From: Winogradskyella endarachnes
GTDB lineage: Bacteria > Bacteroidota > Bacteroidia > Flavobacteriales > Flavobacteriaceae
Length of the DNA stretch: 64,000 bases
NCBI RefSeq assembly: GCF_009741275.1
Contig: NZ_WOWS01000002.1
Location: 744,001 to 808,000 of the forward strand
Direction: 5' to 3'
The position numbers and the translations under genes were made by a program. The notes beneath the pieces are model-generated. The model did no database searches and had not been told where the DNA came from. It worked only from the letters and a program-made list of their open reading frames with translations. Below are positions 4,556 through 53,316 of this stretch, in pieces. Within the stretch, counting starts at the first letter, position 1. The number at the start of each line of letters is the position of its first letter.

Positions 4556-5482
4556 CTATTTTAAAATAAAATTATAAAGTAAAATTGATAACATACCTGT
4601 AAGCATTACCAATTTGTAAATTAAACTGATATGCTTGTATTCTGCCTTAGTTTCTGAATTAAATAATTTAATGCTTGCGTAAATTAATGGCGCAATAACT
4701 ACAATTAAAAAGTAACCAACTACTGGTAATTGCTTAAATAAATACGTCACCACGTAATATGTAATAGATAAAATAGGGAGTAATGAAATAAAGAATACAA
4801 TTTTATTAGCACGTTTTATACCTAAAAGAACTGGTAACGTTTGTATTTGTACTTTTTGGTCGCCTTCAAAATCTTCGAGGTCCTTAACCATTTCTCTAAC
4901 AAGATTAATTAAAAAAGCAAATATGGCATAATCCTTAATTATATTTAGAAAGGTAGTTTGTACAACTTCGTTATTAAAATTTATAGCTGGAATCAATTCA
5001 AAAATACCAACCAATAAAATATTAAGGGCAACAACCAGAGATACAATGGCATTGCCAACAACAGCGATTTGTTTTAGAGATGTAGAATAAATATAAAGTA
5101 GTGCAGAGGCAATAAAAAAGATGGAAAAAAAACCTGTTCTCCCGATACTATTGGTTAGATAAAACCCTAAGCCAACACCAATAATATTAAGAGCTATAAA
5201 AAGAGAATATGCATCTTTTTCACTGATGTTTTTAGTAACAATTACTTTGTTAGGTTTATTAATAGTATCGGTTTCAATATCGTTAATATCATTAATAACG
5301 TAGCCACCTGCAGCAATAAGAAGTGTAGCTAATACAAGTAGAAAAAAGTTGAAATGTGATAAAGATGTTACAACACCGTGACTATCTTCAAAAGGTATTA
5401 ATAAAGCATATTTAATAATGTATTGCACAAAGGCTATCATTAATAGATTTTTCCAACGTATTAAATTAAGTATGTAAATCAT
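4556..5482 (-). CDS. UbiA-family prenyltransferase, GGGP geranylgeranyltransferase-like
   Basis: Integral membrane prenyltransferase with eight to nine hydrophobic helices. The first Asp-rich Mg2+-diphosphate motif is ND-IND-IETD at residues 64-72. The second is the DLEDFEGD segment in the middle of the protein. Flavobacterial members are usually named geranylgeranylglycerol-phosphate geranylgeranyltransferase because they resemble the archaeal lipid enzyme; the true bacterial substrate is not evident here and a quinone-type acceptor is possible. It lies between the 103-residue membrane protein and maf with very short spacers, so it is co-transcribed with them. Confidence 0.88.
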   Translation of the reverse strand: MIYILNLIRWKNLLMIAFVQYIIKYALLIPFEDSHGVVTSLSHFNFFLLVLATLLIAAGGYVINDINDIETDTINKPNKVIVTKNISEKDAYSLFIALNIIGVGLGFYLTNSIGRTGFFSIFFIASALLYIYSTSLKQIAVVGNAIVSLVVALNILLVGIFELIPAINFNNEVVQTTFLNIIKDYAIFAFLINLVREMVKDLEDFEGDQKVQIQTLPVLLGIKRANKIVFFISLLPILSITYYVVTYLFKQLPVVGYFLIVVIAPLIYASIKLFNSETKAEYKHISLIYKLVMLTGMLSILLYNFILK

Positions 5483-50778: not shown

Positions 50779-53316
50779 TCAACTTATGTAGTTCCAAATG
50801 TTTTTAAACTTACTCATTTGGCGGTAAGTAAAAAGAATCATTTTATGGTCTGGTAAAGCTAGGCTTGGGTCGGTTTTAAGTACGTTTTTAGCATAGTAAC
50901 GTGCTTGTTCTAATATATCCTTGTCTTTTACAATATCTGCAATTCTAAGATTTAATACACCACTTTGTTGTGTTCCCATAATGTCACCTGGTCCGCGTAG
51001 TTTTAAATCCACTTCGGCAATTTCAAAACCATCGCTACTGCGTACCATTGTTTCTAATCTTGTTTTACTGTCTTGGCTAAGTTTATGGCTGGTCATTAAA
51101 ATACAATAACTTTGTTCTGCACCTCTACCAACACGTCCGCGTAACTGATGCAATTGCGATAAGCCAAAACGTTCAGCGCTCTCAATTATCATTACAGACG
51201 CATTTGGAACATTTACACCAACTTCAATAACGGTTGTGGCTACCATAATTTGGGTTTCTCCGTTTGCAAAACGTTGCATCTCATAATCCTTGTCTGCAGG
51301 TTTCATTTTTCCGTGTACAATAGATATTTGATAATCTGGCATTGGGAATTCTCTAGAGACACTTTCATAACCATCCATCAAATCTTTATAATCCATTTTT
51401 TCGCTTTCCTGAATTAATGGATAGACAATATAGATTTGTCGGCCTAAAGCAATTTCGTCTTTCATAAACTTGAAAACTTTAAGTCGATTATTGTCATATC
51501 TATGAACCGTTTTTATAGGTTTTCTTCCGGCTGGTAATTCGTCAATAATTGAAATGTCTAGGTCACCATAAACAGACATCGCCAAGGTTCTCGGAATTGG
51601 TGTTGCAGTCATGACAAGAATATGTGGTGGGATAAAAGCTCCTCTAATCTCCTCAGAGGGGAGACTTTTCAAAGTTTCCTGAATTTTATTTAAAACATTA
51701 TCTATACTCCCTATGACTTCTTCGTTCTTAAAACGAATCACTTTAAACCCTAAATCCTTTAAAATTAGCGTTCTGATTTCATTAATTTCAGTTTGTTCTA
51801 AACTATTGTGATAACCTCCATCAACTTCTACAACTAAGTTTTTTTCAAGGTTTACAAAATCTACAATAAATTCATCAATAATATGTTGTCTTCTAAATTT
51901 GGTATCTAGCTTTTTTGCTCTCAAACATTCCCATAAAATACGTTCAGCTTCAGTGCTATTGTTTTTGTTTTCATGCTGAAATTCTTTCATTAAATTATAA
52001 GTCGATGGACGAGCAGTTTTATATTTTTTTAGAACAGCTCTGGCTGCCTCCTTTTGGGAGGATTGAGGAGGGCTTTTTTTCCATAATTTTGACCTTTGTG
52101 CAACTCCAAATCGATGTTGCTCATCAATAATTGCGAGTCCTAAATTCTTAAATTTTACTTTATCTTCAAGAAGCGCGTGTGTGCCAATTAAGAGTTGTAA
52201 ACTCCCGTTTTCTAAATTTTCATGAATAATTTTTCGTTCTGAAGTTTTAGTTGAGCCAGTGAGTAATGAAATACTGATTCCTAATGGTTTACATAGCTCA
52301 CTTAAACCTTGGTAGTGTTGAACTGACAAAATAGCAGTAGGCGCCATGAGGCAGCATTGAAAACCATTGTCAAGTCCCATGAGTATTGACATAAAGGCTA
52401 CAATGGTCTTACCAGAACCTACATCGCCTTGTAAAAGCCGATTCATTTGGGCATTACTACCCAAATCGTTTCTAATTTCTTTTAAAACGCGTTTCTGTGC
52501 ATTGGTTAAATCAAAGGGTAAATGCTCTTTATAGAACGTATTAAAATAGTTGCCAACTTTATCAAAAGTAAAGCCTTTTATTTTAGATTTATGAATAAGA
52601 TTTTTAATAATTAATTGCAGTTGAATGTAAAATAATTCTTCAAACTTTAATCTAAATTTTGCTCTTGCTAAAAGCTTTGGTGTCTTAGGGAAATGAATAT
52701 TAAAAAGGGCTTCTGATTTTGAAATTAATTTTAATTCTTTCAAAATAGAATCTGGTAATGTTTCAGAAAATCGACCTTTAGTTTCCAAAAATAATTGCTG
52801 CATTATTTTGGAAGTTACTTTGTTTGTAATGCCTTTATTCGATAATTTTTCAGTTGAAGGATATATAGCTTGCATGGCAGAACGTAGATTACTTTCGTGA
52901 TCTTTTTTTAATTCTATTTCAGGGTGAGGCATGCTGTATTTTCCACCAAACCAATTCGTTTTTCCAAAAATTACATAGGTCTGTCCAGGTTTAAGACTTT
53001 CTCTAATCCATTTTTGACCACGAAACCAAACCAATTCCATTTGTCCTGTGTCATCTCTAAAGTTAGCAACTAAGCGTTTACCACGTTTTTGTGCCACCTC
53101 TTTAAAACCCATTAATTTTCCTATAATCTGCACTTCGGCACCATTGCGTTGTAACTGATTTATTTTATAATATTGAGTTTTGTCTATATATCTATTTGGG
53201 AATAGGTTGATGAGGTCTTGATACGTGTGTATACCTAACTCCGAACGCAATACATCTGCGCGGTTTGGGCCAACACCTTTGAGGTAATCAATGGGAGTTT
53301 GTAAATTCACACTCAT
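50779..53316 (-). CDS. recG: RecG helicase carrying an in-frame DUF559 domain insert
   Basis: RecG is the branched-DNA helicase that reverses stalled replication forks. The wedge/OB domain occupies about residues 1-200. Walker A is GDVGSGKT (about 297-304), and motif II is DEQHRFG (398-404). Motif III TATPIPRTLA lies at about 568-577. The second helicase domain has STVIEVGVNVPNAS-type, HQLRGRVGR and QQSG segments. Between motifs II and III, residues about 415-561 are foreign: a full DUF559 domain. Without it the protein is about 698 residues, the usual RecG length. The frame is intact through both junctions, so a full-length chimera should be made. Confidence 0.95.
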   Translation of the reverse strand: MSVNLQTPIDYLKGVGPNRADVLRSELGIHTYQDLINLFPNRYIDKTQYYKINQLQRNGAEVQIIGKLMGFKEVAQKRGKRLVANFRDDTGQMELVWFRGQKWIRESLKPGQTYVIFGKTNWFGGKYSMPHPEIELKKDHESNLRSAMQAIYPSTEKLSNKGITNKVTSKIMQQLFLETKGRFSETLPDSILKELKLISKSEALFNIHFPKTPKLLARAKFRLKFEELFYIQLQLIIKNLIHKSKIKGFTFDKVGNYFNTFYKEHLPFDLTNAQKRVLKEIRNDLGSNAQMNRLLQGDVGSGKTIVAFMSILMGLDNGFQCCLMAPTAILSVQHYQGLSELCKPLGISISLLTGSTKTSERKIIHENLENGSLQLLIGTHALLEDKVKFKNLGLAIIDEQHRFGVAQRSKLWKKSPPQSSQKEAARAVLKKYKTARPSTYNLMKEFQHENKNNSTEAERILWECLRAKKLDTKFRRQHIIDEFIVDFVNLEKNLVVEVDGGYHNSLEQTEINEIRTLILKDLGFKVIRFKNEEVIGSIDNVLNKIQETLKSLPSEEIRGAFIPPHILVMTATPIPRTLAMSVYGDLDISIIDELPAGRKPIKTVHRYDNNRLKVFKFMKDEIALGRQIYIVYPLIQESEKMDYKDLMDGYESVSREFPMPDYQISIVHGKMKPADKDYEMQRFANGETQIMVATTVIEVGVNVPNASVMIIESAERFGLSQLHQLRGRVGRGAEQSYCILMTSHKLSQDSKTRLETMVRSSDGFEIAEVDLKLRGPGDIMGTQQSGVLNLRIADIVKDKDILEQARYYAKNVLKTDPSLALPDHKMILFTYRQMSKFKNIWNYIS
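51634..52077 (-). mobile_element. DUF559 insert in recG with inverted terminal repeats
   Basis: About 444 bp (148 codons) inserted in frame. Both ends, read inward, begin AAAAGC, then CTCCTC, then AATC and a TCC run, forming imperfect inverted terminal repeats of about 23 bp. Each is followed by a small hairpin: TCTCCTC-AGA-GGGGAGA (51648-51664) at the left and CCTCC-TTTTG-GGAGG (52047-52061) at the right. The encoded domain (host residues 440-545) has STEAERILW, FRRQHIIDEFIVDF and VVEVDGGYH, with Asp486, Glu497 and Asp499 matching the PD-(D/E)xK-like DUF559 core. The terminal repeats are translated as linkers. No clear target duplication. Mobility is inferred. Confidence 0.75.

What the first reader, a model, noticed from the sequence alone, without database searches (positions are those of the whole stretch)
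51634..52077. DUF559 nuclease-like domain inserted in frame inside RecG
Sequence shows: recG residues about 415-561 break the RecG family pattern between DEQHRFG (motif II) and TATPIPRTLA (motif III) and spell a complete DUF559 domain (STEAERILW, FRRQHIIDEFIVDF, VVEVDGGYH, VIRFKNEEVI). Removing it leaves about 698 residues, the normal RecG length, with motifs II and III rejoined. Family knowledge: DUF559 is related to Vsr/PD-(D/E)xK nucleases. Inference: a mobile domain sits in a loop of a DNA repair helicase and may add a nuclease to branched-DNA processing, or may simply be tolerated.
Basis: partly seen in the sequence, partly recalled or inferred. Interest (0 to 1): 0.88.

Follow-up and report, generated by a model that had tools for sequence, protein, structure and literature searches.

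The report
Mobile nuclease domain inside bacterial housekeeping proteins
A small mobile DNA element encoding a DNA-cutting domain appears to have inserted in frame into the DNA-repair helicase gene recG, and relatives of it sit inside many other ordinary bacterial proteins, so it looks like a selfish element that travels as a protein domain.

Summary
An in-frame 444-bp block (51631-52074, minus strand) interrupts recG between motifs II and III and encodes a DUF559 domain (Pfam 98.9 bits). recG is single-copy here, and most congeners lack the block. It is not a RecG invention: the genome's only other DUF559 match lies in frame inside metH, and across Bacteroidota the domain lies inside or fused to at least 21 protein families confirmed by models, including LeuS, IleS and ValS. 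In 19 of 19 leuS-insert genomes checked, no second leuS was found. Fresh copies are 416-544 bp units with near-perfect 29-40 bp inverted-repeat ends. Copies recur at identical sites, at the homologous site of LeuS/ValS/IleS, and twice in one metH. The fold matches the homing endonuclease I-Bth0305I, and acidic/His residues are invariant. In all nine close recG/metH pairs (host pS below 0.5) insert and host synonymous divergence differ nominally; in eight the insert lies outside every host window. Best reading: an unspliced, inverted-repeat-bounded homing-type element translated as a passenger domain. Mobility is well supported; self-driven homing is inferred. Against: recG inserts mostly track hosts (Mantel r 0.84), and one topology test for transfer was not significant.

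The parts
50779..53316 (-). recG open reading frame (845 aa chimera, stop included)
52075..53316 (-). RecG N-terminal part (wedge, OB, helicase motifs up to II, ...DEQHRFGVAQRSKLWKK)
   Evidence: sequence
51631..52074 (-). inserted element, 444 bp; net +145 codons relative to empty alleles
   Evidence: against empty alleles
52047..52074 (-). left palindromic end AGCCCTCCTCAATCCTCCCAAAAGGAGG (degenerate inverted repeat of the right end, by eye)
   Evidence: single occurrence in own genome at up to 3 mismatches
51985..52023 (-). N-terminal motif of insert-type elements, YKTARPSTYNLMK (family, by eye: YxTA[RDN]PxxYxLLK)
51670..51975 (-). DUF559 (Vsr-like endonuclease) domain, aa 448-549
51943..51945 (-). 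Glu458, invariant in 48 aligned insert-type domains
   Evidence: E45
51859..51861 (-). Asp486, invariant, candidate catalytic residue
   Evidence: D73
51820..51828 (-). Glu497-x-Asp499, both invariant
   Evidence: E84, D86
51808..51810 (-). His503, invariant
   Evidence: H90
51634..51667 (-). right palindromic end AAGTCTCCCCTCTGAGGAGATTAGAGGAGCTTTT
50779..51630 (-). RecG C-terminal part (PPHILVMTATPIPRT... to stop)

Best explanation
The insert is a copy of a mobile element of about 0.44 kb, seen across Bacteroidota: two hairpin-forming terminal inverted repeats around one coding region for a Vsr/I-Bth0305I-type endonuclease domain that stays open through both ends, so that it can be translated as an extra domain of whatever protein it enters. 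In recG it sits between motifs II and III and is carried as a passenger; no splicing module was found. Proposed mechanism: the nuclease, made as part of the host protein, cuts the uninterrupted allele of the same gene and is copied in by repair (homing); rare jumps to new or homologous sites seed new host genes; internal deletion leaves palindromic scars. Shown: insertion, family, ends, same-site patchiness, jump-like placements, conserved residues, insert-limited discordance in synonymous divergence. Inferred: nuclease activity, cutting of the empty allele, and that the nuclease is the mover.
For: Only two DUF559 matches in the genome, inside recG and metH. In the genus, 35 of 60 matches with E<1e-20 lie in frames of 439 aa or more (my count's table). 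Twenty representative hosts all match host family models, eight of the ten in two or more stretches. Insert-type domains form one side of a branch, 147 of 206 rows, support 98; an aldehyde dehydrogenase-MaoC protein (L257) and a peptidase-like protein (L166, by eye) fall inside the metH group. One metH (G273) holds two copies, 344 of 417 bases identical, with sharp inverted-repeat borders and different flanks. Own-end matching: score 12 or more in 81 of 203 elements, 74 of 1011 cross pairings, 3 of 1015 shuffles; in Prevotellaceae 20 or more in 15 of 22 own and 0 of 74 same-genome cross pairings. Same site: recG, metH, ileS, and just before TTR[PA][DE]TI/TTTPWT in LeuS 27, ValS 5, IleS 1. 24 of 26 empty metH alleles keep DGKQEF, which inserted ones lack. 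Fold: 3hrl E 9e-8, I-Bth0305I 3r3p E 3e-5; profile 4.7e-7. pS insert vs host: recG G001/G028 0.09/0.30, G057/G003 0.10/0.33, two Tenacibaculum 0.19/0.49, G021/G050 0.10/0.25, G000/G057 0.58/0.32; metH G000/G057 0.18/0.38.
Against: No activity shown. recG insert and host distances correlate (Mantel r 0.835, p 0.001, 41 sequences), so much of the history is vertical. The insert data do not reject the host grouping (AU p 0.31), and the four metH inserts of the genus are together in the best tree, weakly. No long co-conversion tract in flanks. recG ends are decayed: mean own score 8.1 against 8.4 cross and 6.9 shuffled. At host pS of 0.5 or more (12 distinct recG pairs, 1 leuS, 4 ileS) one recG pair (insert higher) and one ileS pair (insert lower) have nominal p<0.05, the other 15 do not. 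No target-site duplication was recognised. Copies within Prevotellaceae genomes are only 45-61% identical, so no recent burst was seen. No element has been caught moving.
Confidence: 0.62

Rival explanations
1. Passive element: the inverted-repeat unit is moved by some other enzyme acting in trans (for example a REP-type or insertion-sequence transposase), and DUF559 is cargo or has another job.
For: Hairpin ends resemble REP/MITE ends; recG loops L132, L136 and L119 keep end remnants without the domain (by eye); Rickettsia palindromic elements insert in frame with a short peptide of unknown function (passages of PMC10969869). No search for such a transposase in the genome was made.
Against: Acidic and His residues are invariant in 48 diverged copies; within the genus recG-insert dN/dS is about 0.10 (9 of 91 pairs usable); the end motifs of the own recG and metH copies occur once each in the genome, so no abundant repeat family of that sequence is there to be moved.
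Confidence: 0.18
2. Old domain inherited vertically within each gene, with many losses and replacement by ordinary homologous recombination.
For: recG inserts form one group (87); Mantel r 0.835; loops with end remnants suggest losses; AU test not significant.
Against: Three metH inserts are nested among empty alleles, 24 of 26 of which keep a sequence missing from inserted ones; insert pS lies outside all host windows in eight of the nine close recG/metH pairs; inserted and empty recG in close relatives.
Confidence: 0.14
3. Functional recruitment: the nuclease was added to RecG to process branched DNA.
For: RecG binds branched DNA (established knowledge, recalled); the insert is under purifying selection.
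Against: Same insert type in MetH, LeuS, IleS, ValS, HisD, MazG, IcmF and others; absent from 42 of 56 congeners' RecG.
Confidence: 0.05
4. Assembly or frameshift artefact.
For: None found.
Against: Same open insert in 14 genus genomes and other genera.
Confidence: 0.01

Closest known systems
EDxHD homing endonuclease I-Bth0305I (PDB 3r3p)
   Same: Related fold and sequence; a nuclease associated with mobile DNA. A DUF559 gene is assigned to the EDxHD family in a passage of PMC9403480.
   Different: I-Bth0305I has added DNA-binding regions and is described among intron-related enzymes (review passages PMC3943268; entry name 'Mobile intron protein'); here the domain is inside a host protein without a splicing module, between inverted repeats. 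The column of Asp486 is not Asp in 3r3p.
Rickettsia palindromic elements (RPE)
   Same: Palindromic elements inserted in frame in unrelated genes (passages of PMC10969869 and PMC3733652).
   Different: About 150 bp with a conserved peptide in those passages; ours is about 440 bp and encodes a nuclease domain.
WHO elements of yeasts
   Same: Homing into a housekeeping gene without protein splicing (abstract of PMC7282813).
   Different: Intein-zinc-finger proteins that replace the 3' end of FBA1 (abstract and section titles); ours lie inside or at the ends of many bacterial genes and are Vsr-like.
Inteins
   Same: In-frame, same conserved sites, nuclease-bearing (recalled).
   Different: No splicing domain was found in the recG chimera.
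VsrA of Caulobacter (DUF559)
   Same: DUF559 protein; responsible for the SOS response in part of cells lacking a methyltransferase (passage of PMC12907096).
   Different: Free-standing gene with a proposed mismatch-repair role.

Membership tests
DUF559 / Vsr-like nuclease (PF04480) | Profile match above the curated cut-off | tested here: met
   98.9 bits against 20.6
DUF559 / Vsr-like nuclease (PF04480) | Conserved acidic and His positions | tested here: met
   E458, D486, E497, D499, H503 invariant in 48 sequences
DUF559 / Vsr-like nuclease (PF04480) | DNA cleavage | not testable with these tools
   needs biochemistry
Homing endonuclease element | Nuclease related to a proven homing endonuclease | tested here: met
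   3r3p in Foldseek and profile searches
Homing endonuclease element | Fixed site in a conserved gene, occupied in some and empty in other close relatives | tested here: met
Homing endonuclease element | Insert history differs from host history | tested here: inconclusive
   synonymous divergence discordant in close pairs, overall distances correlated, AU p 0.31
Homing endonuclease element | Cleaves the empty allele | not testable with these tools
   needs biochemistry
Intein | Splicing (Hint) domain round the nuclease | tested here: not met
   no such Pfam family in the recG chimera at E 0.001
RPE-like palindromic element | Palindromic ends, in-frame insertion into unrelated genes | tested here: met
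RPE-like palindromic element | Short unit without an enzyme | tested here: not met
   encodes DUF559
Classical inverted-repeat transposon | Terminal inverted repeats | tested here: met
   29-40 bp near-perfect in fresh copies; decayed in recG
Classical inverted-repeat transposon | Target-site duplication | tested here: inconclusive
   none recognised by eye in six copies; no empty alleles at those sites
Classical inverted-repeat transposon | Own DDE/HUH transposase | tested here: not met
   within the element the only domain found is DUF559 (sequences)

The most novel reading that the evidence does not exclude
A class of mobile element not previously recognised: a homing-type nuclease that travels as an unspliced, in-frame protein domain bounded by hairpin inverted repeats, homes at fixed sites in essential genes, and hops between homologous sites of paralogues (LeuS, ValS, IleS), making permanently chimeric but working housekeeping enzymes across a phylum.
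Probability: 0.45. Interest if true: 0.93.

Novelty: new variant of a known kind. Interest (0 to 1): 0.86.

Why it matters
If right, selfish nucleases need neither introns nor inteins to survive in essential genes: they can be tolerated as extra domains. This gives a concrete route for domain insertion in protein evolution, accounts for extra nuclease domains in tRNA synthetases, RecG and MetH of Bacteroidota, and offers a homing system that can be tested in harmless laboratory strains.

Tried and rejected
RecG gain of function: rejected because the same insert type occupies unrelated enzymes. Genome-wide REP family in this genome: end motifs of the recG and metH copies occur once each at up to 3 mismatches. 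Long co-conversion tract at recG of G055: not seen; only the 30 bp on each side hint at another donor. Topological proof of transfer: AU p 0.31 for the insert, so not claimed; for metH the four genus inserts are already together in the best tree with weak support, which removed an earlier idea, drawn, that G021's copy came from another genus. Whole-chimera structure prediction: pLDDT 64, pTM 0.33, not used; so whether the insert forms a separate domain on the helicase was not settled. Recent within-genome bursts: none; same-genome Prevotellaceae copies are 45-61% identical. One search gave 742 bp for the L255 element by taking the last of several right-end copies; one search corrects this to 519 bp to the nearest one. 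Dropped rows: one search leaves out recG frames under 640 aa; one search used the 203 elements left after leaving out short flanks and identical domains; of 23 Prevotellaceae loci, 22 gave an element. Most host names are by eye; 20 proteins were checked by models.

Full report
What is there. The window's recG (50779-53316, minus strand, 845 aa) has all RecG domains plus DUF559 at aa 448-549. Against solved RecG 1gm5 it aligns as two blocks that leave the insert out. recG is single-copy in this genome at E 1e-60. Empty alleles of the genus read LWxK-N-[TEN]-x-PP[HN], which sets the insert at 51631-52074, 444 bp, net 145 codons. Its ends are G/C-rich palindromes in inverted orientation (orientation by eye).

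Not a RecG affair. This genome has two DUF559 matches; the other is in frame inside metH. In the genus sample (60 genomes, 43 with a match) 35 of 60 matches with E<1e-20 lie in frames of at least 439 aa (my count): recG, metH, leuS, ileS, a PLP-dependent enzyme and, by eye, an HsdR-like protein. Reading flanks and checking 20 representatives by models gives, with RecG, 21 families. Internal: RecG, MetH, LeuS, IleS, ValS, IcmF, RdgB, MazG, WecB, DegT, GH31, an ABC ATPase, an aldehyde dehydrogenase-MaoC protein, HsdR and an Eco57I-type methylase. Terminal: HisF, RNase H, HemD, a PLP enzyme, HemF (N-terminal) and HisD (C-terminal). I gave nineteen of the genomes with a leuS insert plus G306: none of the 19 shows a second leuS at E 1e-40 (one draft is 78% complete; the G193 match crosses a stop), and G306's leuS is empty.

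Anatomy of a fresh copy. Six intergenic or intragenic copies from Bacteroidales (mostly Prevotellaceae) are units of 416, 460, 485, 510, 519 and 544 bp with end repeats of 29-40 bp, up to 31 of 31 identical; L255 has further right-end copies beyond the nearest one. In Prevotellaceae genomes each copy matches its own other end rather than those of copies in the same genome: own score 20 or more in 15 of 22, cross 0 of 74, although those copies are only 45-61% identical. Over all 203 usable elements own ends match at score 12 or more in 81, cross pairings in 74 of 1011, shuffles in 3 of 1015. So a majority of elements do not pass that score. In recG the ends have decayed and own matches do not exceed cross matches (8.1 against 8.4), as an old copy would show.

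Movement. In the domain tree (206 rows) most in-frame copies lie on one side of a branch (147 rows, support 98); recG copies are one group (87), and two unrelated genes fall inside the metH group (root drawn at the midpoint, few columns, 102 of 203 branches unresolved). Some in-frame hosts (HemD, the PLP enzyme, HemF, HsdR, Eco57I-type, HisF, RNase H) fall outside that group, so more than one DUF559 lineage does this. G273's metH carries two copies, 344 of 417 bases identical, with sharp ends and different flanks; they group with one metH copy of another genome (support 96). The insertion recurs at the same place: recG 41 sequences, metH, ileS 18, and just before the editing-domain motif in LeuS (27), ValS (5) and one IleS (L234, named by eye), which is a homologous position in paralogues. 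In recG, 77 sequences split into 41 inserted, 31 empty and 5 with longer loops, needing at least 14 changes of the inserted state, 7 of them forced by well-supported branches; of the five, L132, L136 and L119 keep recognisable end remnants by eye, and L136 is sister to an inserted Tamlana nanhaiensis (support 100). In metH, 4 of 42 genus genomes are filled, and 24 of 26 empty alleles read share DGKQEF, which filled ones lack.

Synonymous divergence. With ends trimmed, insert pS differs from host pS at nominal p<0.05 in all nine distinct pairs with host pS below 0.5. recG, lower: G021/G050 0.10 against 0.25; G001/G028 0.09/0.30; G057/G003 0.10/0.33; Tenacibaculum larymnensis/gallaicum 0.19/0.49. 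recG, higher: G000/G057 0.58/0.32; G000/G003 0.58/0.37. metH, lower: G000/G057 0.18/0.38; G057/G048 0.33/0.48; G000/G048 0.34/0.49. The insert is outside the range of all equally long host windows in eight of the nine; in metH G057/G048 9% of windows are as low. Of 17 more distant pairs (12 recG, 1 leuS, 4 ileS) two have nominal p<0.05, one in each direction. Both directions occur, so a slower synonymous rate is not the cause. The pairs share sequences and are not independent. Against this, overall distances correlate (Mantel r 0.835) and the topology test on the insert is not significant (p 0.31). I read it as mainly vertical passage with occasional insert-limited exchange.

Nuclease. The 48-sequence alignment keeps T, E, D, ExD and H; the predicted domain (pLDDT 83) matches 3hrl, I-Bth0305I (3r3p) and, weakly, Vsr (1vsr E 0.11). 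In the alignment to 3r3p the Asp486 column is not an Asp, so identical chemistry is not claimed. Within-genus dN/dS of the recG insert is about 0.10 against 0.04 for the host (9 of 91 pairs usable).

Literature. Ten searches of an open-access library gave no paper that, from the listings and passages seen, describes DUF559 inside housekeeping proteins; most subscription papers are not held. Relevant neighbours: RPE (passages), EDxHD enzymes (passages), Caulobacter VsrA (passage), WHO elements (abstract and section list). The I-Bth0305I primary paper was not held.

Verdict. The insertion and its family of in-frame mobile relatives are solid. That the nuclease drives homing is the best explanation but unproven. 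I class it as a new variant, because RPEs, homing endonucleases and WHO elements each share part of it.

Noticed in passing
L001 (G000:C45) near the NTVNDDD motif of metH: A second variable loop of metH holds short repeat-like peptides (NAELDSASNEG; longer ones in L004 and L266), where G273 has its second DUF559 copy: another insertion-prone spot.
   Followed up: partly
L193: Record named Limnohabitans carries a recG with insert that groups with Flavobacterium difficile: probably a binning contaminant.
   Followed up: no
L204 2638-3894 and L255 4574-5836: Predicted N-termini of neighbouring genes begin with palindrome-like peptides (SSPLLKEGTGVV; SPPKGDLEG); in L255 this is an extra copy of the element's right end at 4591-4621.
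   Followed up: partly
genus of G000: G003 recG host part is identical to that of an uncultured Winogradskyella record (L179), so the genus is probably Winogradskyella.
   Followed up: partly
G055:C29, G048:C1, G132:C2: Short-frame DUF559 matches lie about 1-1.4 kb apart in pairs with near-equal scores; their sequences were not compared.
   Followed up: no
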